64,000 nucleotides of DNA, taken from Candidatus Woesearchaeota archaeon. Its GTDB lineage: Archaea > Nanobdellota > Nanobdellia > Woesearchaeales > JABGUJ01. Location of the stretch: assembly GCA_018646625.1 (NCBI GenBank), contig JABGUJ010000002.1:164843-228842 (forward strand), in the 5' to 3' direction. Position 1 is the first letter of the stretch, and each line of letters starts with the position of its first letter. This document shows, piece after piece, positions 32,257-50,826 of this stretch. Under the pieces are notes generated by a model. The model saw nothing but the letters and a program-made list of their open reading frames with translations, was not told the origin of the DNA and searched no databases. The translations under genes and the position numbers were made by a program.

Positions 32257-35200
32257 TTAATCGTCTCTTGTTAGGCTGATGTAGTTAACTAAATCATCAC
32301 CAGTATCTGCAACAAACCAATTACCTTGTACACAAGTACTTGGCATGCCTGACGTTAGAAGTGTGATTATATCAGTTTCACCATCTTGCCAAGTATCTTT
32401 GTTACCGTCATCACCACAACATTTCTTATAGTTTCCAAACGATGTGTCGTCTCTCCAACAACCAGTATCGCCCATATTATTACAAGGGTTAGCTAGCAGT
32501 ACACCACCTTCACTGATTATCCTACAAACTCCTTCAGCATAATCCGCATCGTTTATGTATTCAGCATCCACACAACCTCGCGGATTATCTTGATCTGTTA
32601 TGTACCATGTTTCGGATTCATCATCACCGCAACAAGGCGCGTTATCATGACTAGAACCGTCTATCCAGCAATATGAATCGTATAAATCTTCACAATTTCC
32701 AATATTAATTCCTTGATTAGTACAATATTCGAATGAGTTGTCTCTATCCATCCCAGTTTCATTAATTACACAAGCATACTTCCATTCAGACTTAGACTTA
32801 CCTGGATTGTCAAGCCAGATTGTCTCACCAGCACATTCTTCTTCTGATTGACAAACCTTTCCTGCGTCATCCTCAGCAATAGTCCAGTTTCCAGCAATAG
32901 AATCACAGAAATATACTATGGTTGATTCACTTTGATCTTGACATATTTGATATTCATTATTACATTCGACTTCGTGTTGTTCACAAGGGCTTGCAGCATT
33001 ACAGGTATAAATCTCCCCTTTGTTGCATAATTGTTTTTTATTTGAACTTAAAGCATTATCCCCATCAGGAGTACATTCACCCATACCACCACATGCAACT
33101 GCATTTTCGCAGATCTCATCATCGCAATCAGCAACACCATTGCAATCGTTATCAACACCATCGGTGCAGTTATTGTATTCGGTGGTGCTTAAAGTATAGA
33201 CAAGCGGTATCTTGTTATTAATAGGACAATCGTCACAAGCATCGCCCAGACCATCTTCATCTTGATCTAATTGATCAGTGTTTTGTGTGAGTAAGCAATT
33301 ATCTACATCATCCGCAATCTCATCTTCATCGGAGTCCGTAATACATTCTCCAAAGATAGTACCAACATAATTGCATTTGGAACCACAATATGAACATTCC
33401 GAATCTTCGCATTTGTTCCAAAACCCAGTACCGCATTCTTCACAAGAATTACACATATCATCACAAGCAGGATCTGCAGGGTGTTCTACACCGTCAATCA
33501 TACAGCCCGCAACATCGCAGACACCATCCGCATCGTTATCTAATCCATCGGTGCAAGAGTCTAAATCGTTCTCCACATCACAAACGTCCACAACACCATC
33601 ATTATCTTCATCGTTTAATGTAACATCAATCACAGGATTAATGCAACTATCACAATCATAAACACCATCATGACATTCTTTAACACAGTGATACTGTTCT
33701 ACAAACATTCCATAGTTAGGATCTGAAGAATCAGTCACACAGTATTCCCACAGCTCTTCAGTATTGGTAATCATATCCCAGCTGTCATCAATCTCATAAC
33801 AATATTTGTGCATATCATCTAAATCAATATAGTATGCATCTGTCGGGTCACCTAACTTATAAAAGTCATAATCTCCTTTAGTATTATCGGTTGGCCAGCA
33901 ATCAGAAACATCTGGACTTCCATCGCCATCATAATCAGTTAGAACAGTTTCATCCACTTGACCATTGCAATCGTTATCAACACCATCACCTAATCCACAA
34001 TCAGGCAATTCTTGAGAGCAAGCTAAATCTTCGTAATTAGTATAGCCCATATCAAAAGCAACAGGATCGTGTGTTTTTTGACAGTCGCAACCATCTTCAT
34101 AGTTATTATTTGAATCAAAATAACCATTAAAGCAACTACAATCTATTGTGTAATCAATATCGCAATCAATATTACAACTTGCAGAAGCTCCAGATTCAGA
34201 ACAAGTGTTTAAGCAAGCACACATCATGTTTTTCTCATTGAATGTGTAGGTAGTTTGTCCGCAAGGTGTTGTGTCGAAGTTATCATCACAAGTCGCTTCA
34301 GGCCAAGTACAATCTGCAGAACAAGTAACGACATCATCACTCACCATACTAGCAAGAGTAAAATCATCGATACAATAATTATTGCATGTTTCTGTTTTAG
34401 TATTACTCTCAGTACACTCAGCACCACACACATCTTTTAAGCAAGTGAATCCTGAGTTACATGAAGATATCGAAGTACATGTCTGTTCTGTTGCTCCAAC
34501 CCTGGATCTTAATGAGTCATCTCCTTCGCAAAGTTCGCAAACCATACAACCCGGATCGTTCGCACAATTGCCTAGCGGATTCTGACTACAGCAATCTCCG
34601 CCGCCAACAGTGAGAGTTTGTACATATATCGGGGTTCCTGGCACCTCCGTGGCCATTGTTTCATCTATATAACAAGCAACTGCAGTACTTCCAGCATCCC
34701 CTGAGTTACATTCAAATTTCTTTCTATATTCTCCAGAGTGTTCAATCCAACCAACGAAAGTACATCCAAGATCATCTGCAATCTCTATACTATCCAGGTT
34801 TGGCGCGTTTGCAGTACAGTATACTTCAATAGTTTCACCAGGGCAAGGATTCAATTTAGATACTTCAATTCCAGATAAAGATACTTCACAATCTTCATCA
34901 TTAGGCAACGTGTTTAGACCTTCATAATCTAAAGTACCATCACAATCATTATCTAAACCATCATCACATATAGTCTCGGCAGGCAGTAGTCCGGTACAGT
35001 CTTCCCAACCTTGTGCACCTAAGCAAGTCTTTTCTTCTCCTTGACATTCTCCTTGTTGATTATCACAAAGTTCCATCTCCATATTATAATCATCAGAGTC
35101 TATTCCATCCTTGCAATTATTATCAATACCATCACATACTTCTGCAGCATCAAGATTAATCTGCGCATTAGAATCATCACAATCACCTGCAATAGTAACT

Positions 35201-38200
35201 TGCCCTGCTGCGCATGCACCCGCACAAGAAGATTGAGCAGTATTTATGTTTCCAAACTCATCACCATCGGAATCAGTGTAGCAAGTCATGGTTGCAAGAT
35301 TCTCATCAACATCACCATCACAATCATTATCTAAACCATCACATATTTCAGAATCAGAAGGACTTATCTCCGCATCAGAATCATCACAATCCCCATCTTG
35401 AGTAACATATCCAACATCGCAGAAATCATAACAAACTTGAGTTAATGTGCTTCCGTAACCGTCATTATCAGAGTCTAAATAACAGTCCAGTAAAGGAAGA
35501 TTCTCGTCTTTCTCACCATCACAATCATTATCATCATCGTCACACACTTCAACAGGTTCAGGACCACACTGATCACAAGCATTCCTTAGCGCATATTCGA
35601 TCGATCCAATTTCATCAAATAAACCATCACAATCTTCATCCCCGCCGCCACAGGCTTCGACAGGCGTATCGCCACAACCGCCGCAAGCATTGGTTAATGC
35701 ATATTCGATCGATCCTATTTCATCAACTAAATCGTTACAATTATCGTCTAAAGAATTACAAGTTTCTTGTGCGCCTGGATAAACTAAATCGTTATCGTCA
35801 TTGCAATCCAGATCACCGCACTCACCACCTTGAATGCTGTAACCATCATTATCATTATCAGTACAGATCAAACAAGTTTCGTTAAGTGTTGGGTCATTAT
35901 CATCACAATCGTAAATTACAGGATCATAATTTCCATTTAAACAGTTGGCAGGATTTTGCCAAGGTTCACAAACAATACACTTTTCATAATCTTTCCCACC
36001 CATATTTTCGTTGCAGTAACCATCACCATCTAAGTCGTATGCGCAATGCGCACCAGCGTCTGTTGGTACACAACCAAGATTACAAGGTAAAACCGAAAAA
36101 GAACCTGGAGCGTATGGACCATATCCCGGGGAGCCATCAGGATAGTATATATGATTCCCGCATTTTGCTTCATTTATACTATTAGAGCTAAAACAATTAT
36201 CAGTAAATTCTTTAATAACGCCCGCAGAATTCACAAATCTGCTTATCGATGGAATCATTTTAAATGTTGTCCCATGAAGTGAATATTCATTAGCATAGTA
36301 TTCTTCTAAGTTATTTAATTCGCTACATGCGCAATATCTCACCTTATCAGTTCCAACAAATATTGTATCAACTAAGTCATCGCAATCCTCATCAACTCCA
36401 TTACACTCAGTTAACTCAGAAACTCCCGGATTCACATTAAAATTATCATCATCACAATCAATATCACCACAGTCTCCACCTTCTATACTGTAGCCATCAC
36501 CATCATTATCAGTACAAACTAGACAGTTTTCATTAACTGTTGGATCGTTATCGTCACAATCATAAACGGGCGTACCGTAGTCCTCATTAGCACAATCTGG
36601 ATCGTCATCAGGAGTACAAAGTAGACAACGTTCATAATCAGTTATTGTTGTGGATGATGATAAAAATGAATTACAGTAACCATCCCCATCTACATCATAA
36701 ACACAATGAGCGCCTTCGCTTGTTGTAACACACCCAAAAGGACAAGGTCTAGAATGTAATGTAGCTGCATCCTGAGGACCATAACCTGGAATTCCTTCAC
36801 CAAAAAACAGATTGTTATTGCAAATCGATTCATAAAAGTTTTCGTCGCTACAAAGATCCGCATATTGCTGTGGCACACCATAATGATTGTTGAACAAAGC
36901 CTTAGACGGAATATAACTTAAAGATACGCCACCATCAGAGTATTTAATCGGTGAATTTTCTTCAATAGAATTAGACTCACTACATGCGCAATATCTTACA
37001 AAGTAAGAACCAACTATGATTTCATCTATGAGGGTATCGCAATTTTCATCTACACCATTGCAGACTTCCTGCGCACCAGGATAAATGTCAGGATTATTAT
37101 CATTACAATCAATAGTACCACAGTCTCCGCCTTCGATACTGTAGCCATCATCATCAATATCCGTACAACTTAAACAATTTTCATCAACTTCCCCATTACA
37201 ATTATCATCTATATCATTAGAGCAAATCTCAGTCATTCCTTGGTTGACATTAGCATCTTCATCATTGCAATCATAAACAGGAGTTCCATATTCGCCATTC
37301 TCACAATCAGGATCTTCATCAGGCGTACAAAGCAAACATCTTTCGTAGTCTGTAGTTACTGATGAACTAGCAAGGTGTAAATTACAATAACCATCATCAT
37401 CTATATCATATTCACAATAGGCACTCTCATCTGTTGGTACACAACCAAGATAGCATGAGTTGTAAAGCCCGAGTGGCTCGCTACTAGTTGGAACCCCAGT
37501 CCCATATCCTGGAGTGCCGTCATTGAAGTAAGGCTCATTTTTACATGCTGCTTCAAGAATGGCAGTAGGGCTAGTACACACATCTTCTTTTTGTTTCGAC
37601 ACACCGAGGGCGTCTTTATACTGAGTGACAGATGGAATATGAATTAAAGAAACAGTATCGTGAGGATTAATGGTAGGGGAATTTTGTTCAATAAGATTAT
37701 CTTCAGTACAATCACAATAGTATAGTTTGAATGGACCAAAACCTACTGAGGACATTTGTTTTGCATCTATAAAACCATCACAATCATCATCGACATCATT
37801 ACAAGATTCTTGTGCACCTGGATAAACGTTAGGATTGTCATCATCGCAATCTACTTCCCCGCATTCGCCACCTTGAATACTGTATTCATCTAAATCAACA
37901 TCAGTACAAACTAAACATCCTTCATCTACTTCACCATTACAGTTATCATCTATTTCATTAGCGCAAACTTCTACCGCATCAGGATTAATATTGGAATTAG
38001 AATCATCACAATCATAAACAGGAGTTCCGTAATCTTCATTCTCGCAATCAGGATTTTCGTTCGGTGTACAAAGTAAACAACGCTCATAATCGTTCATGTT
38101 CTGTGAGGTGGAGAGTAAATTGTTGCAGAACCCATCTCCATCCTGATCATAAATACAATGTGCACCTTCACTCGTTGTATCACAACCAAGAGGACAAATC

Positions 38201-41200
38201 ATAGAAATTAATTTAGATGCACTTCCTGGGCCGTATCCAGGGATGCCAGCACCATAGAACAAAGCATTGTTACATGTTGCCTCGTAAAGAATATTAGCAT
38301 AGCATGAATCTGGACTTTCATACCAGTTTCCTGCGTGGCCTTTGTATTTGACTTTTGAAGGTATATAGTTGAGCAGGACACCGCCATCCGTAGGATCTTT
38401 TTCTGGCGAATCTTCTTCTAGAATGTTAGATTCAATGCAGGCACAGTATCTGACAATGTAGGAGCCAATAAACATTTCATCTATGAGAGTATCGCAATTT
38501 TCATCTACACCATTGCAGACTTCCTGTGCGCCTGGATAAATGTTAGGATTATTATCATCGCAATCTTTGGCACCACAGTCACCACCATATGTGCTGTAGC
38601 CATCGACATCATTATCTACACAAGGAGAACAAGCGCCATCTACGCATTGATAATCTTGCACGCAGTGATTGTCAGTAACACAAGAATTCCTGCATTCAGC
38701 GGTGTTCAATCTCACATAAGGATCACAAGATTGACATGCAATATCGTCATCGCAAATAGTATTAGAAGTCATTGTGCAACTAGCTCCGCTTTGAGCATTA
38801 TTTGGTTCACAGGTCATGTCACCATAGTAGCAGATACCTCCATCAACATATCCGTTGCCGCGAATTGATACGCCAGTAGCTGAACTTGCTTCGCCGTCAG
38901 TGCAAGTCCCTTGTCCAGAGTAACATATATCAGAGATAAATGTGTTAAGAGGAGATGCAGCGTGATAGCCATCCTGATATATATAGTGAATATCTTCATA
39001 GTAACAACGCCTAGTGCTTGTATCTTTGCACCCAGTATAAGAGTAATAGCAGTTGTTTGCTGCAAAATAATGTCCAGGACATAGTCCAGTTTTACTAATT
39101 GTTAGGACACTGTAACCAGGAGGTGTTGATGTCGAGCAGCCAGCACAGTCAGAATCAACAATGTCTATATCACCATCACAATCATTGTCAAGTCCATCAT
39201 CACAAAAAGTTTCAGAAGCAGTACAAGGACTACATTCGTTATCTATACAGTTATTGTCTGTAATACAATGACTGTCTTGAGTGCAAGAAGTTCTGCAAAT
39301 ATTACCGTTGCAATTATATGCACCGCATGATGTTGTTGTCTGAGAAGTGCACGCACCACCTGAACAAGTAGATTGAGTCTTAGCTTCATAAACATTTCCT
39401 GAAATAATTCCGCATGTAGCTGGAGGACAACTAGTTCCCCCTATTTGTGTTGAACAGTATCCTGAACCGTCACATGCTTTCCCTGTGTAAACTAATCCGT
39501 TTCTACAGAATGGTTCATCAATACAAATTGTTCCTGCAGCGACGTTATAAGAAGGAGGACTGCACTTGCCAACCGATCCCGAAGTACATGATCCAAACTT
39601 AGTTCTGCACCCTTCATTTTCAATTATTTTTTCACAAGAAACTTGCGATTGCCAAACTCCTGAAGTGCATGACTTGTAATACTCATCGTTATAACATTTC
39701 TCATAACCGTTTGAAAACTCATTACCGGATGAATCATATATACATTTATTTTGAGAGTGGCATCGTTTTGTTCCAAAAAAATCAAGATCACATTGATTAC
39801 TTTTACAATCCGAATCTGTTGTACAAACTTCTCCGTTTGTTAATTTACAGTCTATATCATTAGCATCCATATACCCATCACAATCGTTGTCCACCCCATC
39901 GGAACATAAACCAGATTCGAATTCTTTACATGAAACACATTCTCCGCTTAAACAAAAATAGCTACTATCTGCACAATCAGCATTTGATGAACAAGTTGTT
40001 TTACAAGTATAACTTGCACAAGCATATGCGCCACAATCATCATTGGAACAACAATTTGATGATGCAGAACCTACACAACCAGAACCGCAGCAAATGCCAT
40101 CTGCATTTAGTGATGATGCGGAGAGATAGTCGTTAGGATTTACATCTTTGTCACAAGAATCTCCATCAACACAAAGGGAACAATCGTTACGATAAACCCC
40201 CAAATCGTCTTCGCAAACTTCGTTAGGATCACAATTTATTTGAGTATAACTTGAAGGTAAAACTGCTCTAGATACCGTAACCGAACATATTCCTGTTGGA
40301 GAAAATCCAGGGTGTGCATCATTATCGCATAGCCTTAGTTCATCACCTGCATGATTTCGAGTATAACAATCAGCCATGTATTTACCAATGCTTCCAACCG
40401 CAACTTCTTCTTTGTCACAGTGATCAATATTAGAGTCGAGTTCCCCTATTGAACACATTCCACTGTATGGATGTGTATAAGAGTAATAATTATCACTACA
40501 TCTCGCTCCATTTGTATCAGAAGATGCCAAAACATCACAATGTTCTTTGCATAATCCTTCTACACAAAAATTTGCGTCATTACAATCATTTTTATCAGTA
40601 CAAGTTTCAGGAACACAATCATTGTTTGAGCACATTTCATTATCTTGACATTGCCAGTCAGCAGTACAATCAACCCATTTTCCATCAGTCATACATTCTT
40701 CTTTATCTCCATCACCATCAATATCATGGTGACAGTTTTCATTGTAGTTGCAACTAAATTTAAGACAGGCATTATTATTGTCATTACAATCAGTCATAAT
40801 GCCATCAAGTCCTGGATCATATATACACATTCCAAGGGTTATTGATTGCTGCTCGTTGTTATAAGTCGTTATTGGACTTTCAGCAAGACATATGTCCCGT
40901 CCTGTGGCTTCAGTACTACTACATATTGCCCCGTCATTGGTATCACATGCACCTGAGGAAACAAGATTATTCTCAAACTGAGAATCAAAAAAACAATTAC
41001 CTGGAGCAATACCATAAAACGGCTCACAATTACTATCTCCATTGCAGTCAGTATAGCCAGATTTTCGTATATACTTACATTGAAAATTATCACAATAAGT
41101 GTAGCAATTATTGCTGTTACAAGGATCCTGTCCAACCACCGCACCGGCAAGATCACACTCATCGTTTGAACAACATTCAGCTTCGTTGGAAGGTGTTGAA

Positions 41201-41751
41201 GATGCAAACTTATATCCATCAGTTGTGCAGTAGCAAGTCACGCCACCGCATTGAGAAATTGAATCTCCTAACGGAATTGTTGTGGCAGGTGAATTACTGT
41301 AAACACACAGTTTTGATTGTTCAGTCCCCGTACATCCCCATCCGTTGGCAGTACACATATCTTCAGTCCCATAATGACAATAATAACCAGATTCCAAATA
41401 CTCACCGCAGTCAGCCTCAGGAGTTGTATCTCGACCATAATATCTACATTTACAGCAATCAAAGGCACCATTTCCTGCACCAACCCAACTCAAAGTCCAC
41501 GCAGGCATACATATGTTGGTACCGGGAATACATTTAGGAGTATAGACATTGAAACAGGCATTATTACACTGTCCAGCAGGATCAGCAATGTACAAACAAT
41601 AGTTCGAATTATCCGGATCAACCATCGAAGAATCACAAGTAGTTCCTGATTGTATGCTGGTATGATACAAAGTTGCATTAACGCCAACACAAAGAATCAA
41701 AAGTACTATTGAGAACAAGAAAATACTAAGTACTTTTCGTGTTATATTCAT
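32257..41751 (-). CDS. Giant secreted Cys/Asp-rich MopE-like protein (3164 aa)
   Basis: A signal peptide (VLSIFLFSIVLLILCVGVNA) leads to an ectodomain packed with Cys and Asp. Many copies of the MopE-type motif (C-N-G-V-D-E-N-C-D... and CDGLDNDCDGDVDE) and DxDxDG loops resembling thrombospondin type 3/EF-hand-like Ca2+ sites (DEDNDGVVDVCD) are present. Four repeats of about 220-245 residues fill the middle. The end has two CCGDD...TW modules. There is no C-terminal anchor or PEF-like signal, so it is probably released or held by its operon partner. MopE proteins bind copper or calcium at cell surfaces. Adhesion, predation or host attachment is a plausible role (inference). Confidence 0.85.
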   Translation of the reverse strand: MNITRKVLSIFLFSIVLLILCVGVNATLYHTSIQSGTTCDSSMVDPDNSNYCLYIADPAGQCNNACFNVYTPKCIPGTNICMPAWTLSWVGAGNGAFDCCKCRYYGRDTTPEADCGEYLESGYYCHYGTEDMCTANGWGCTGTEQSKLCVYSNSPATTIPLGDSISQCGGVTCYCTTDGYKFASSTPSNEAECCSNDECDLAGAVVGQDPCNSNNCYTYCDNFQCKYIRKSGYTDCNGDSNCEPFYGIAPGNCFFDSQFENNLVSSGACDTNDGAICSSTEATGRDICLAESPITTYNNEQQSITLGMCIYDPGLDGIMTDCNDNNNACLKFSCNYNENCHHDIDGDGDKEECMTDGKWVDCTADWQCQDNEMCSNNDCVPETCTDKNDCNDANFCVEGLCKEHCDVLASSDTNGARCSDNYYSYTHPYSGMCSIGELDSNIDHCDKEEVAVGSIGKYMADCYTRNHAGDELRLCDNDAHPGFSPTGICSVTVSRAVLPSSYTQINCDPNEVCEDDLGVYRNDCSLCVDGDSCDKDVNPNDYLSASSLNADGICCGSGCVGSASSNCCSNDDCGAYACASYTCKTTCSSNADCADSSYFCLSGECVSCKEFESGLCSDGVDNDCDGYMDANDIDCKLTNGEVCTTDSDCKSNQCDLDFFGTKRCHSQNKCIYDSSGNEFSNGYEKCYNDEYYKSCTSGVWQSQVSCEKIIENEGCRTKFGSCTSGSVGKCSPPSYNVAAGTICIDEPFCRNGLVYTGKACDGSGYCSTQIGGTSCPPATCGIISGNVYEAKTQSTCSGGACTSQTTTSCGAYNCNGNICRTSCTQDSHCITDNNCIDNECSPCTASETFCDDGLDNDCDGDIDIVDSDCAGCSTSTPPGYSVLTISKTGLCPGHYFAANNCYYSYTGCKDTSTRRCYYEDIHYIYQDGYHAASPLNTFISDICYSGQGTCTDGEASSATGVSIRGNGYVDGGICYYGDMTCEPNNAQSGASCTMTSNTICDDDIACQSCDPYVRLNTAECRNSCVTDNHCVQDYQCVDGACSPCVDNDVDGYSTYGGDCGAKDCDDNNPNIYPGAQEVCNGVDENCDTLIDEMFIGSYIVRYCACIESNILEEDSPEKDPTDGGVLLNYIPSKVKYKGHAGNWYESPDSCYANILYEATCNNALFYGAGIPGYGPGSASKLISMICPLGCDTTSEGAHCIYDQDGDGFCNNLLSTSQNMNDYERCLLCTPNENPDCENEDYGTPVYDCDDSNSNINPDAVEVCANEIDDNCNGEVDEGCLVCTDVDLDEYSIQGGECGEVDCDDDNPNVYPGAQESCNDVDDDCDGFIDAKQMSSVGFGPFKLYYCDCTEDNLIEQNSPTINPHDTVSLIHIPSVTQYKDALGVSKQKEDVCTSPTAILEAACKNEPYFNDGTPGYGTGVPTSSEPLGLYNSCYLGCVPTDESAYCEYDIDDDGYCNLHLASSSVTTDYERCLLCTPDEDPDCENGEYGTPVYDCNDEDANVNQGMTEICSNDIDDNCNGEVDENCLSCTDIDDDGYSIEGGDCGTIDCNDNNPDIYPGAQEVCNGVDENCDTLIDEIIVGSYFVRYCACSESNSIEENSPIKYSDGGVSLSYIPSKALFNNHYGVPQQYADLCSDENFYESICNNNLFFGEGIPGYGPQDAATLHSRPCPFGCVTTSEGAHCVYDVDGDGYCNSFLSSSTTITDYERCLLCTPDDDPDCANEDYGTPVYDCDDNDPTVNENCLVCTDNDGDGYSIEGGDCGDIDCDDDNFNVNPGVSELTECNGVDEDCDDLVDTIFVGTDKVRYCACSELNNLEEYYANEYSLHGTTFKMIPSISRFVNSAGVIKEFTDNCFSSNSINEAKCGNHIYYPDGSPGYGPYAPGSFSVLPCNLGCVPTDAGAHCAYDLDGDGYCNENMGGKDYEKCIVCEPWQNPANCLNGNYDPVIYDCDDNDPTLNETCLICTDNDNDGYSIQGGECGDLDCNDDNDLVYPGAQETCNSLDDNCNDLVDEIGSIEYALTNACGGCGDTPVEACGGGDEDCDGLFDEIGSIEYALRNACDQCGPEPVEVCDDDDNDCDGEKDENLPLLDCYLDSDNDGYGSTLTQVCYDFCDVGYVTQDGDCDDSDAEISPSDSEICDGLDNDCDGDVDENLATMTCYTDSDGDEFGNINTAQSSCAGACAAGQVTIAGDCDDSNAQINLDAAEVCDGIDNNCKDGIDSDDYNMEMELCDNQQGECQGEEKTCLGAQGWEDCTGLLPAETICDDGLDNDCDGTLDYEGLNTLPNDEDCEVSLSGIEVSKLNPCPGETIEVYCTANAPNLDSIEIADDLGCTFVGWIEHSGEYRKKFECNSGDAGSTAVACYIDETMATEVPGTPIYVQTLTVGGGDCCSQNPLGNCANDPGCMVCELCEGDDSLRSRVGATEQTCTSISSCNSGFTCLKDVCGAECTESNTKTETCNNYCIDDFTLASMVSDDVVTCSADCTWPEATCDDNFDTTPCGQTTYTFNEKNMMCACLNTCSESGASASCNIDCDIDYTIDCSCFNGYFDSNNNYEDGCDCQKTHDPVAFDMGYTNYEDLACSQELPDCGLGDGVDNDCNGQVDETVLTDYDGDGSPDVSDCWPTDNTKGDYDFYKLGDPTDAYYIDLDDMHKYCYEIDDSWDMITNTEELWEYCVTDSSDPNYGMFVEQYHCVKECHDGVYDCDSCINPVIDVTLNDEDNDGVVDVCDVENDLDSCTDGLDNDADGVCDVAGCMIDGVEHPADPACDDMCNSCEECGTGFWNKCEDSECSYCGSKCNYVGTIFGECITDSDEDEIADDVDNCLLTQNTDQLDQDEDGLGDACDDCPINNKIPLVYTLSTTEYNNCTDGVDNDCNGVADCDDEICENAVACGGMGECTPDGDNALSSNKKQLCNKGEIYTCNAASPCEQHEVECNNEYQICQDQSESTIVYFCDSIAGNWTIAEDDAGKVCQSEEECAGETIWLDNPGKSKSEWKYACVINETGMDRDNSFEYCTNQGINIGNCEDLYDSYCWIDGSSHDNAPCCGDDESETWYITDQDNPRGCVDAEYINDADYAEGVCRIISEGGVLLANPCNNMGDTGCWRDDTSFGNYKKCCGDDGNKDTWQDGETDIITLLTSGMPSTCVQGNWFVADTGDDLVNYISLTRDD
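35579..35760 (-). repeat. Tandem pair of about 40-residue repeats in the giant gene
   Basis: Two adjacent units begin GSIEYALTNACGGCG and GSIEYALRNACDQCG, each with a CxxC and ending in a DEDCDG or DNDCDG acid loop and DE. In DNA they lie about 110 bases apart and share long stretches such as CATATTCGATCGATCC. They look like a recent local duplication. Confidence 0.65.
35820..38610 (-). repeat. Four large imperfect tandem repeats in the giant gene
   Basis: Anchor phrases (YSIEGGDCG, ...VRYCAC, IPS, GYGP, GAHC.YD.DGDGYCN, DYERCLLC, YGTPVYDCDD) recur in the same order four times. Anchor starts lie near 35.82, 36.47, 37.12, 37.86 and 38.58 kb, giving units of about 0.65-0.74 kb. Some DNA segments near 37.02 and 38.48 kb are almost identical, which points to recent duplication or gene conversion. 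Confidence 0.8.
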
Positions 41752-47700: not shown

Positions 47701-48105
47701 ATGGAAGATCATCCTTGGATTGGTATAGATGCAATCATTCTTAGTGAAGACAAAAGTAAAGTTTTGTTGATTAAACGAGGCTCTAAAGCGTACAATGGTT
47801 ATTGGGGTTTTATTTCTGGGAAAGTTGAATGGGGAGAAGAGATTAAAGAGACAGTGATTAGAGAAGTTAAAGAAGAGACAAATCTGGATGTTATTGATGT
47901 TAAGTTTATTGGTAGATATTATGATAAAAAAGGAAGACATCCTACTAAGACCATGATTTGCCTACCACATTTTTGTACAGTTAAGGGCGAGTTGAAGGCT
48001 GGCGACGATGCAGTAGATGCTAAATGGGTTAGTTTAGAAGAAATTAAAAATATGGATTTAGCTTTTGATCATAAACAAATGTTAATAGATGAGAAATTAC
48101 TTTGA
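47701..48105 (+). CDS. NUDIX hydrolase
   Basis: The 134-residue protein has a complete NUDIX box, G-x5-E-x7-REV-x-EET, in the stretch GKVEWGEEIKETVIREVKEE. It hydrolyses a nucleoside diphosphate linked to another group. The third position in the mtnP-apt operon suggests an adenine- or PRPP-related nucleotide such as ADP-ribose, but the substrate is not known. Its last 9 bases overlap the convergent lgt gene. Confidence 0.92.
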   Translation: MEDHPWIGIDAIILSEDKSKVLLIKRGSKAYNGYWGFISGKVEWGEEIKETVIREVKEETNLDVIDVKFIGRYYDKKGRHPTKTMICLPHFCTVKGELKAGDDAVDAKWVSLEEIKNMDLAFDHKQMLIDEKLL

Positions 48106-48879
48106 CTTTTTCTTCTTTTTTGGTTGTTTCTTAGCGTTTAGTTTTCTTCTTGTAACCAACCAAATGCCTAATGCACCAATAATGATTATAGGAAGACTCA
48201 GATATTGTCCAATAGTTAATCCATTGTATAATGGAAAGTCTTTCCAGAATTCTACTATAAATCTAAATATACCGTATATGAAAAAGAAACTCCAGAATAC
48301 AAAACCATGCGGAAGTTTTTTCATCAGATTAAATTTATACATTATTAGAAATATTACAAAATTTTTGAACGCTTCATAGAGCTGGCTAGGGTGTCTTAAT
48401 CCCTCGTAACCATCAAACTCCACACCAATCCAGGAGGGAGTGACTCTACCTACAAGTTCTCCGTTAGTAAAGTTACCAAGTCTAACAAACATCGCACCTA
48501 GTGCAACAGGGACCATAGTTATGTCAGCTAATCTGTAAAATTTAATCTTCTTTATTCTTGCAAAAATTAGTGCAGCAATAGTCCCGCCAATCATACCGCC
48601 ATGACTTGCTAATCCACCTTTCCAGATGTACAGTATCTCTAGAGGGTATGTTAAGTAAAAGTCTGGTTCGTAAACTAAACAATGTAATAGTCTTGCGCCA
48701 ACTAAAATTCCAATCGCCATCCAAAAAACGTAGTCGGCAACTTGATCAAGGTCTTTGAAGACCTTCTTTTCTTTGGCTAATTTCCTTAGTATGAAGAAAC
48801 CGATTAAGAAAGCTAATGCCATTAGTACACCATAGTATCGTACCTGAAAAGGACCTAATTCTAGCAGTATTGGATTCAT
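48097..48879 (-). CDS. lgt: Prolipoprotein diacylglyceryl transferase
   Basis: The 260-residue, seven-helix membrane protein transfers diacylglyceryl to the lipobox Cys. Family signatures are RYYGVLMALAFLIGF, the SHGGMIGG loop, GNFTNGELVGR and RHPSQLYEAF. It ends in a poly-Lys tail. Lgt is the bacterial pathway and is uncommon in archaea; its presence explains the lipobox proteins at 23486 and 25375. The second enzyme LspA is not in the window. The lipid donor would have to be an archaeal lipid, an open question. Confidence 0.93.
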   Translation of the reverse strand: MNPILLELGPFQVRYYGVLMALAFLIGFFILRKLAKEKKVFKDLDQVADYVFWMAIGILVGARLLHCLVYEPDFYLTYPLEILYIWKGGLASHGGMIGGTIAALIFARIKKIKFYRLADITMVPVALGAMFVRLGNFTNGELVGRVTPSWIGVEFDGYEGLRHPSQLYEAFKNFVIFLIMYKFNLMKKLPHGFVFWSFFFIYGIFRFIVEFWKDFPLYNGLTIGQYLSLPIIIIGALGIWLVTRRKLNAKKQPKKKKKSK

Positions 48880-48931: not shown

Positions 48932-50365
48932 ATGAAGTGGTTGATGAAACATAAAAGAGAGATCATACGAGTTGTTGTTGTTGCTTTGCTCTTGTTTGCG
49001 ATGTTTCCAGTACTAGCTAAAATTCTATTTTCTAATACCCCATATTTGTATAAAGCTCTTGAGCAAAATTTTTGGTTATTGGGCGTTACCGTGCTAGCAT
49101 TTTTAGTTATATCTCATTCAAAAATTAAATCTAACAAGTATGGTCTTGATTGTGTGTTAGTTATTGTTGGTCTAATTTTTATTATAGGGAGTGCATATTC
49201 GTTGGTTAGCATCGATTCTTTACCACACTCGTCTCTTAAGGTTAAAGGAGATTATGGTTTTGGTGAAGATAGACAATTGAACAAAGGCTGGATTGACTTA
49301 GAATCTGCGAGAGTACTTAGCTTTGCACCTCTTAATGTTCGTGTTCCAGTTTATGGAATCTATCTTATGGATTCAGATTCAGTTGTTCGTAAAGAGATTA
49401 TTCTTAACGAAGTCTCCGAGGATCTTACAGTCGCAATCCATTTATCTTGGCAAAATAGCTCTGTAGTCGTTTCATCTTTTGGTGAGAAGGATAATAATTA
49501 TGTTGGTTTGGTTATTAATGGTAATGAGTTTGACGTTTCTGATAGTGTTTTTAAGAGTGAAGAGTACGAAGGATTATGGATTTATGTTAGTGTTCCTGCA
49601 AGTTATTTTGTCGAAGGTGATAATATAATCTCTGTTAAATCTCGGCCGGGCGATAAAGTAGTAAAGGTTTCTGAGATTGTTTCAGGGAATGTTTCTTCGA
49701 TTATTGGCTCTTCAGGATTAGTGCATGAAAATGATAATTTGCTTATTTTTATCTCTGGAGATCGTTCTTTTTTCTATGAAGTTGGAAGTTTGCTTAAAAT
49801 ACTCGGGTTGCTGTTAATTTTCGTAGGTTGTGCAGGAATTCGATGGAAAGATGTTGTTAAAACTAAAAAAGAATTGTTATTCTCTATTGTTTTGTTGAAT
49901 GCTTTCTTTTATTTATCCTCTATTGCTAAAGAATATTGGTTTGTTTTGTCTAAAGCAGTTAGCTGGATTAATCAAACGTTGTTTGTTCTATTAGGAGTTC
50001 CGTCCACTCTTGAATTGGATAATCTCAGTGCCCCAGTGTTTCACATCAAAAATTTCTTTGTTAGCATCTCCACACCATGTTCAGGGATTGCTTCTTTGAA
50101 TTATTTTATGATTGCAATTGTTGTCATGTTAATTGTTAACTGGAAAGAAATAGATTTTAGGAAAGCCCTGTTTGTTGTTCCTCTAGGGATAGTTGGAATG
50201 TTCTTGATTAATACGTTAAGAGTATTTCTTTTGTTAATTATTGGTGCTTATTGGTCTCAAGAAATTGCTATAGGGATATTTCACACGTCTGCTGGGATGA
50301 TTTTGTTTATAATTTATTTTGGATTGTTTTGGTTCTTTGGTTGGAAGTACATGAGAAAAAGTTAA
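48932..50365 (+). CDS. Archaeosortase/exosortase-family transpeptidase with inserted beta domain
   Basis: The membrane enzyme has the archaeosortase catalytic trio: Cys383 in TPCSGIAS, Arg430 in NTLRVF and His451 in IFHTSAG. It cuts C-terminal sorting signals and joins the substrate to a lipid. Unusually, a soluble beta-rich domain of about 180 residues (roughly 100-285) lies between the second and third groups of helices. The overlapping convergent gene encodes a likely substrate ending in a PEF-type signal. A TATA-like GGTTTATAAA box precedes the start. Confidence 0.85.
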   Translation: MKWLMKHKREIIRVVVVALLLFAMFPVLAKILFSNTPYLYKALEQNFWLLGVTVLAFLVISHSKIKSNKYGLDCVLVIVGLIFIIGSAYSLVSIDSLPHSSLKVKGDYGFGEDRQLNKGWIDLESARVLSFAPLNVRVPVYGIYLMDSDSVVRKEIILNEVSEDLTVAIHLSWQNSSVVVSSFGEKDNNYVGLVINGNEFDVSDSVFKSEEYEGLWIYVSVPASYFVEGDNIISVKSRPGDKVVKVSEIVSGNVSSIIGSSGLVHENDNLLIFISGDRSFFYEVGSLLKILGLLLIFVGCAGIRWKDVVKTKKELLFSIVLLNAFFYLSSIAKEYWFVLSKAVSWINQTLFVLLGVPSTLELDNLSAPVFHIKNFFVSISTPCSGIASLNYFMIAIVVMLIVNWKEIDFRKALFVVPLGIVGMFLINTLRVFLLLIIGAYWSQEIAIGIFHTSAGMILFIIYFGLFWFFGWKYMRKS

Positions 50366-50826
50366 TGTTTTCTTTTTGAAATAAATATTGCTAATGTTAT
50401 TGCAACTACTAACGCTATTAGTCCAAAGTATAATGGGAATTCTGGTGCATCTTGTGCCATGTTGTGTATTACACACTGGTCATCAACTACGCAGATTTGA
50501 TTTACACAATCAGTACATTGATCAGGAGCTACCAAAAAATCACAATTTGAGTTGATAGCACATTCTGGAAGAAAATGTCTTTGGCATTCATATGTTTCAC
50601 AATGTACTACGACATCACACTCATGATTACCTGGAATTTTCCAGAAATAATTAATCGAACCATCATCAAAATAGCAACAAGTTGAACCTATTGAAACCCC
50701 ACAACAGTTTTGAGAAGAAGGCTCGTCTTGAATATAGCAGGTACCAAACACAGCCCCAGGAGGCGCAGCAAAGACAAAACTGCTAATCAAAAGCAGCCAC
50801 ACAACCATGAGGATTAACGTTTTCAT
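50362..50826 (-). CDS. Secreted Cys-rich protein with PEF-CTERM-like sorting signal
   Basis: The 154-residue protein has a signal peptide (VVWLLLISSFVFA), a Cys-rich middle with at least seven Cys pairs, and a C-terminus APEFPLYFGLIALVVAIT followed by a basic KRKH tail. This is the three-part form (PEF motif, hydrophobic helix, basic end) recognised by archaeosortases. It overlaps the archaeosortase gene tail-to-tail by 4 bases. It is therefore a candidate dedicated substrate. The mature function is unknown. Confidence 0.75.
   Translation of the reverse strand: MKTLILMVVWLLLISSFVFAAPPGAVFGTCYIQDEPSSQNCCGVSIGSTCCYFDDGSINYFWKIPGNHECDVVVHCETYECQRHFLPECAINSNCDFLVAPDQCTDCVNQICVVDDQCVIHNMAQDAPEFPLYFGLIALVVAITLAIFISKRKH

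What the first reader, a model, noticed from the sequence alone, without database searches (positions are those of the whole stretch)
48932..50826. Archaeosortase with inserted beta domain, overlapping a PEF-type substrate gene
The catalytic Cys/Arg/His are present, but a 180-residue beta-rich domain is inserted in the loop facing outside. The tail-to-tail neighbour ends in APEFP-helix-KRKH, the expected signal. It may be a dedicated enzyme-substrate pair with built-in substrate recognition.
Basis: partly seen in the sequence, partly recalled or inferred. Interest (0 to 1): 0.6.

Follow-up and report, generated by a model that had tools for sequence, protein, structure and literature searches.

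The report
Archaeosortase with inserted outer domain
In a tiny uncultured archaeon, a membrane enzyme that cuts and anchors surface proteins carries an extra outward-facing domain and sits beside a small secreted protein bearing its expected cutting tag; enzymes with this extra domain recur in a few related archaea, nearly always beside the only tagged protein found in that genome.

Summary
Window 48932-50365(+) encodes a 477-aa archaeosortase: PF09721 E=4e-18; TIGR04178 50.8 bits, cut-off 23; C383/R430/H451 intact. An acidic, Cys-free insert of about 190 residues (aa 94-282) lies in an outward loop between TM3 and TM4. The tail-to-tail neighbour (50362-50826, minus strand) is a secreted 154-aa protein with 14 Cys, ending PEFP-helix-KRKH.

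The insert is not a one-off. A survey of archaeal relatives found it in six other genomes, as one homologous domain. Five keep an adjacent small Cys-containing PEF gene; in the sixth the active-type gene is missing or unassembled. Genome-wide, a signal model finds exactly one PEF protein in each of those five, the adjacent gene, and two in the window's genome. It finds 2-15 in 14 genomes with ordinary archaeosortases and 0-1 in genomes without. One related family also has catalytically dead paralogues that keep the insert.

So an archaeosortase subfamily with near one-to-one substrate pairing is supported. That the insert recognises the substrate is not shown: it could bind the lipid or glycan acceptor. 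Its fold is unresolved. The partner misses the curated PEF-CTERM cut-off (12.1 vs 23 bits). This is a new variant of a known kind.

The parts
48932..50365 (+). Archaeosortase/exosortase-family transmembrane enzyme, 477 aa, with extracytoplasmic insert
   Evidence: PF09721 E=4e-18; TIGR04178 50.8 bits > 23; 8 insert-type sequences including this one form a clade, 95/91 support, on core columns
49211..49777 (+). Inserted domain (aa 94-282) between TM3 and TM4, acidic, Cys-free, predicted outward-facing, beta-rich by sequence
   Evidence: absent from 18 plain relatives in A3; homologous in 6 other genomes (W173, N196, G229, N231 invariant in 9 sequences); no Pfam family
50078..50080 (+). Catalytic Cys383 codon (TPCSG motif)
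   Evidence: invariant in A3 and A8; the archaeosortase active-site Cys, reported as Cys-173 in Haloferax ArtA in PMC7157517
50219..50221 (+). Catalytic Arg430 codon
   Evidence: invariant
50282..50284 (+). Catalytic His451 codon
   Evidence: invariant
50362..50826 (-). Candidate dedicated substrate: 154-aa secreted protein, 14 Cys, tail-to-tail with the sortase (4-bp overlap)
   Evidence: PEF genes at five other insert-sortase loci
50767..50826 (-). N-terminal signal peptide of the candidate substrate (about aa 1-20)
   Evidence: hydrophobic core and SSFVFAA cleavage-like site, read from sequence
50365..50445 (-). C-terminal tripartite sorting signal PEFPLYFG-helix-SKRKH
   Evidence: signal model hit E=3.9e-10 (this row was in the model); TIGR03024 sub-threshold 12.1 bits

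Best explanation
The two genes are an archaeosortase and its main, near-dedicated substrate. The small Cys-rich protein is exported through its signal peptide and stays held in the membrane by its C-terminal helix. The sortase attacks at the PEF motif with Cys383 (helped by Arg430 and His451), releases the helix-KRKH tail and transfers the new C terminus to an amine-bearing membrane lipid, as proposed for ArtA. The inserted outer domain is most likely a docking module beside the active site that helps this variant work on one or two partner proteins instead of many. Shown here: family, active-site residues, insert, its conservation, and the near one-to-one pairing by genomic count. Inferred: cleavage at PEF, lipid transfer, and the docking role of the insert.
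For: Enzyme family and catalytic residues. Insert homologous in six other genomes; 8 of 9 insert sequences form a clade on core columns, 95/91. Small secreted Cys-containing PEF gene adjacent in G233, G435 and G548, one gene away in G569 and two in G437. Genome-wide PEF hits: 1 in each of these five, always that gene; 2 in the window genome; 2-15 in 14 plain-sortase genomes at E<=0.1; 0-1 in 7 genomes without a sortase match. Mann-Whitney p=0.0004 at E<=0.1 and 0.0045 at E<=0.001. A signal model built only from plain-type substrates still ranks the neighbour first genome-wide in G548 (6e-7) and G569 (1e-4). Between active enzymes with different partners the insert diverges faster than the core (G233a-G435a 36% vs 54%), as expected of a partner-facing domain.
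Against: The window genome has a second, unlinked PEFP protein (C1:374535-375410, lipobox plus signal). The plain-only signal model misses the neighbours in G233, G437 and G435 and scores the window's neighbour only E=0.98, so further divergent substrates could be overlooked. Neighbour ectodomains are not homologous across genomes except G233/G437. Dead paralogues keep the insert. Dedicated systems of another sortase type (rhombosortase, PMC3237569) show the same gene adjacency without needing such a domain. Three of the six counted insert-type genomes belong to one family, so counts are not independent. Insert fold unknown.
Confidence: 0.5

Rival explanations
1. The insert binds the acceptor (a lipid headgroup or surface glycan) or the envelope matrix, not the protein substrate; the single adjacent substrate reflects small secretomes or gene-cassette inheritance.
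For: Catalytically dead paralogues in G233, G437 and G436 keep a well-conserved insert (72-74% identity among themselves) and sit between phosphodiesterase (PF01663) and sulfatase (PF00884) genes, with a PAPS-reductase-domain gene (PF01507) in G233, which suggests envelope-glycan chemistry. The nine-row insert profile's only PDB hits are C-terminal strands of a glycoside hydrolase (5TA0/5TA1), not significant at E=0.057.
Against: Does not explain why insert-type genomes have one or two PEF proteins and plain-type genomes several. The dead paralogues are confined to one family; no glycan genes flank the window pair.
Confidence: 0.27
2. An ordinary PEF-type archaeosortase; the insert is a neutral loop expansion and the adjacency is unremarkable.
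For: Several plain sortases also have PEF genes within a few kb (L034, L038, L039, L040, L059, L071), and loop expansions are common in membrane enzymes (general knowledge).
Against: The insert is a homologous domain kept across lineages with invariant W, N, G, N positions, and retained even in dead copies. Substrate counts differ.
Confidence: 0.18
3. The neighbour is not a sortase substrate at all but a membrane-anchored Cys-rich protein whose APEFP stretch is coincidental.
For: Sub-threshold on TIGR03024 and other CTERM models; plain-only signal model E=0.98.
Against: A second protein in the same genome shares the tail at 63% identity over the signal, with an unrelated ectodomain; a similar layout recurs at five other loci.
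Confidence: 0.05

Closest known systems
Archaeosortase/exosortase superfamily (TIGR04178, PF09721), incl. ArtA of Haloferax volcanii (PMC7157517)
   Same: Multi-TM core with Cys/Arg/His, acting on secreted proteins with a short motif, TM helix and basic tail
   Different: An extracytoplasmic domain of about 190 residues inserted between TM3 and TM4; scores far below the cut-offs of every named subfamily hit (ArtC 37.6 vs 100; XrtA 31 vs 208)
PEF-CTERM / archaeosortase C system (TIGR03024 / TIGR03762)
   Same: PEF motif, C-terminal helix and KR tail; ArtC is the best-scoring named archaeosortase subfamily for the window protein
   Different: Signal 12.1 bits vs cut-off 23; enzyme 37.6 bits vs 100; genome has 2 candidate substrates
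Dedicated single-target sorting systems (described for rhombosortase/GlyGly-CTERM, PMC3237569)
   Same: One target in the genome, encoded beside its enzyme
   Different: Unrelated enzyme family; an inserted outer domain is not part of that description
Exosortase E/protease, VPEID-CTERM (TIGR04162)
   Same: Enlarged exosortase; at G569 a separate CPBP-type (PF02517) gene lies between the insert-type sortase and its PEF gene
   Different: There the extra part is a fused protease domain, not a TM3-TM4 insert; window 28.5 bits vs cut-off 150

Membership tests
Archaeosortase/exosortase superfamily | TIGR04178 / PF09721 match above curated cut-off | tested here: met
   50.8 bits vs 23; PF09721 66.1 vs 25.7
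Archaeosortase/exosortase superfamily | Conserved Cys, Arg, His active-site residues in C-terminal TM core | tested here: met
   C383, R430, H451 invariant; residues from about 330 on modelled at pLDDT above 85
Archaeosortase/exosortase superfamily | Peptidase/transferase activity on a C-terminal signal | not testable with these tools
   needs biochemistry
Archaeosortase C (TIGR03762) | Score above the curated cut-off of 100 bits | tested here: not met
   37.6 bits
PEF-CTERM proteins (TIGR03024) | Score above the curated cut-off of 23 bits | tested here: not met
   window neighbour 12.1 bits
PEF-CTERM proteins (TIGR03024) | Tripartite C terminus (PEF motif, TM helix, basic tail) plus N-terminal signal peptide | tested here: met
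   sequence read directly
Dedicated (single-target) sorting system | Only one target in the genome, near the enzyme gene | tested here: inconclusive
   one target near the enzyme in G233, G437, G435, G548, G569; two targets in the window genome, one adjacent; divergent signals might be missed
Exosortase E/protease VPEID (TIGR04162) | Score above 150 bits, fused CPBP protease domain | tested here: not met
   28.5 bits, no CPBP domain
Galactose-binding-like / jelly-roll domain (for the insert) | Significant sequence or structural match | tested here: inconclusive
   no Pfam hit; PDB profile hit E=0.057 only; AlphaFold insert model unusable

The most novel reading that the evidence does not exclude
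A subfamily of DPANN archaeosortases has gained an outward-facing recognition domain that turns a general sorting enzyme into one dedicated to a single co-encoded Cys-rich surface protein, and has further given rise to dead paralogues that use only the recognition domain, as pseudo-enzymes of envelope assembly.
Probability: 0.3. Interest if true: 0.65.

Novelty: new variant of a known kind. Interest (0 to 1): 0.48.

Why it matters
How archaeosortases choose substrates is, to my knowledge, not settled, and no solved structure related to this enzyme was found by sequence. A variant with a removable outer domain and only one or two natural substrates would be a clean system to test recognition. 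It also gives a simple handle on surface-protein anchoring in DPANN archaea; a search of the paper library found nothing joining Woesearchaeota and sortases. The pseudo-archaeosortases would be a new kind of component if confirmed.

Tried and rejected
TIGR03024 in the own genome: no true hits, only weak matches to unrelated frames. Single-protein scan of genome contigs: none. Alignment scan of genome contigs: 66 relatives, none with this insert recognised, but its one pattern (FH[ST][NQY]...) cannot match the window's own FHTSAG, so the scan is blind to at least part of the insert-type members. AlphaFold of the full protein (core good, insert not) and of the insert alone (pLDDT 31) gave no fold for the insert; Foldseek of the full model gave nothing at E<=0.001. 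IL-1beta hits of the three-row insert profile vanished with nine rows, so rejected as chance. A weak NosD Pfam hit (E=0.01, one member only) was rejected. Relatives from the genome search were left out of the structure job because its stated rule does not list them.

Full report
What is there. The window lies in a 1.57-Mb, four-contig genome. Its order contains records titled Candidatus Woesearchaeota, Nanoarchaeota or Nanoarchaeia archaeon: G040, G084 and G268 have contigs of the same length as JANQNC010000001, JAGLMD010000140 and JACQNC010000014. At 48932-50365 (+) is a 477-aa protein of the exosortase/archaeosortase family, the only one found in the genome by tblastn. Against 18 plain relatives it shows an extra stretch, aa ~94-282, between TM3 and TM4. 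Cytoplasmic loops are K/R-rich and the insert is acidic (27 D/E, 15 K/R) and Cys-free, so it should face outside, the side on which the active-site Cys lies. Cys383, Arg430 and His451 are invariant. The neighbour at 50362-50826 (-) overlaps tail to tail by 4 bp. It is 154 aa, with a signal peptide, 14 Cys and a PEFP-helix-KRKH end.

Is the signal widespread in this genome? A pattern search and a profile of PEF tails each found just one further protein, at C1:374535-375410 (-). It is about 267 aa from its likely start, with a lipobox (LLAGC), 19 Cys and an end, APEFPAYLGIIALLAAITIALLISKRK, 63% identical to the window signal. The profile that scored it first (A1, E=4e-7) did not contain it. So the enzyme has two candidate substrates, one adjacent.

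Is the insert a one-off? No. A class-wide search gave 24 genomes with a sortase, nearly all 300-370 aa, and one (G233) with two long copies aligned across the insert. A profile of the insert then found members in G233, G437, G436, G435, G548 and G569 among 353 genomes of the order. A 371-genome sample of the phylum added no clear new ones; all clear hits were in the same order. Nine sequences align through the whole insert, with W173, N196, G229 and N231 invariant. On columns outside the insert, eight of nine form a supported clade (95/91); the ninth (G569) is a long branch whose place is unresolved, and a single origin of the insert is not ruled out.

Neighbourhoods. By the insert-type sortase lies a small secreted PEF protein in G435 (135 aa, 10 Cys, directly downstream), G548 (268 aa, 20 Cys, convergent as in the window), G233 (113 aa, 7 Cys, upstream), G437 (113 aa, 9 Cys, two genes between) and G569 (81 aa, 4 Cys, a CPBP-type gene between). 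G436 shows only a dead copy, on a short contig. In G569 the catalytic CSG reads SSG, so its activity is doubtful. The ectodomains are not recognisably homologous except between G233 and G437.

Counting substrates. One profile (A5) was run on 28 genomes. Insert-type genomes gave 2 (window) and 1, 1, 1, 1, 1, each single hit being the neighbour; G436 gave one weak hit (E=0.012). Fourteen plain-sortase genomes gave 2-15 at E<=0.1 (0-6 at E<=0.001, counted by hand from the listing). Seven genomes with no sortase match gave 0-1, the latter weak. Mann-Whitney p=0.0004 and 0.0045. Limits: the neighbours of the insert-type sortases were in the profile, which favours finding them rather than missing others; but a profile of plain-type signals alone put the neighbour at the top only in G548 and G569, and missed it in G233, G437 and G435. 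Signals of these genomes have diverged, and unlike ones could be missed. Three of the six counted genomes belong to one family, so the tests overstate independence.

Mechanism. For ArtA of Haloferax, cleavage and lipid attachment by way of an active-site Cys and archaetidylethanolamine has been proposed (PMC7157517); the same chemistry is the natural reading here, inferred from homology. The insert, on the outer face with the active site, most likely docks the partner. In favour: the near one-to-one counts, and faster divergence of the insert than of the core between active enzymes with different partners (36% vs 54% for G233a-G435a). Against: the dead paralogues in G233, G437 and G436 (NSSG for the Cys motif, Arg and His lost) keep a conserved insert and lie with phosphodiesterase and sulfatase genes, which fits a binder of glycan or lipid as well. 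The fold is unresolved: no Pfam match, one non-significant PDB profile hit to C-terminal strands of a glycoside hydrolase (E=0.057), unusable AlphaFold models for this part.

Known or new. Single-target sorting systems with adjacent genes are a known pattern (PMC3237569). What is new, as far as the tools and the paper library show, is the inserted domain marking a subfamily, its association with one or two substrates, and dead insert-bearing paralogues. The original archaeosortase survey (Haft 2012) is not held in the library, so an earlier mention of such an insert cannot be excluded. No curated subfamily claims the protein. Verdict: new variant of a known kind; observation confirmed; interpretation partly supported.

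Noticed in passing
window 48097-48879 (-): A full bacterial-type Lgt (prolipoprotein diacylglyceryl transferase, PF01790, E=4e-69) lies 52 bp from the sortase, divergent. The family is in 296 of 335 genomes of this archaeal order (170 of 179 good ones), although a 2026 paper states Lgt is absent from archaea (PMC13251419). A 2025 paper on archaeal lipoproteins (Hong et al.) that may already report this is not held.
   Followed up: partly
G000 C1:374535-375410 (-) (L143 8536-9411): Second PEFP protein combines a lipobox signal peptide with a C-terminal sorting signal, so it could be anchored at both ends. A similar lipobox-plus-PEF protein is in L034 7456-8136.
   Followed up: partly
L030 6333-7775 (+), L138 10342-11784 (+), L139 1854-3296 (-): Catalytically dead archaeosortase paralogues that keep the inserted domain, each followed by a sulfatase gene and preceded (in G233 with one gene between) by a phosphodiesterase gene.
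   Followed up: partly
L142 2558-4927 (-): Insert-type sortase with SSG in place of CSG, a CPBP/Rce1-like protease gene and an 81-aa PEF peptide in one apparent operon, recalling the exosortase E/protease fusion.
   Followed up: partly
L021 229-2388 (-): A plain archaeosortase fused to a flippase-like multi-TM domain (719 aa).
   Followed up: no
window 32257-41751 (-): A 3164-aa secreted Cys-rich protein with many DCDG-type repeats; a comparable giant Cys-rich gene (over 2551 aa) lies next to the pair in G548 (L141 9347-17001).
   Followed up: no
L058, L071, L072, L081: Records titled Patescibacteria, Saccharibacteria or bacterium carry archaeosortase-like enzymes with PEF/PEL-type substrates beside them, related in sequence to the DPANN versions.
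   Followed up: no
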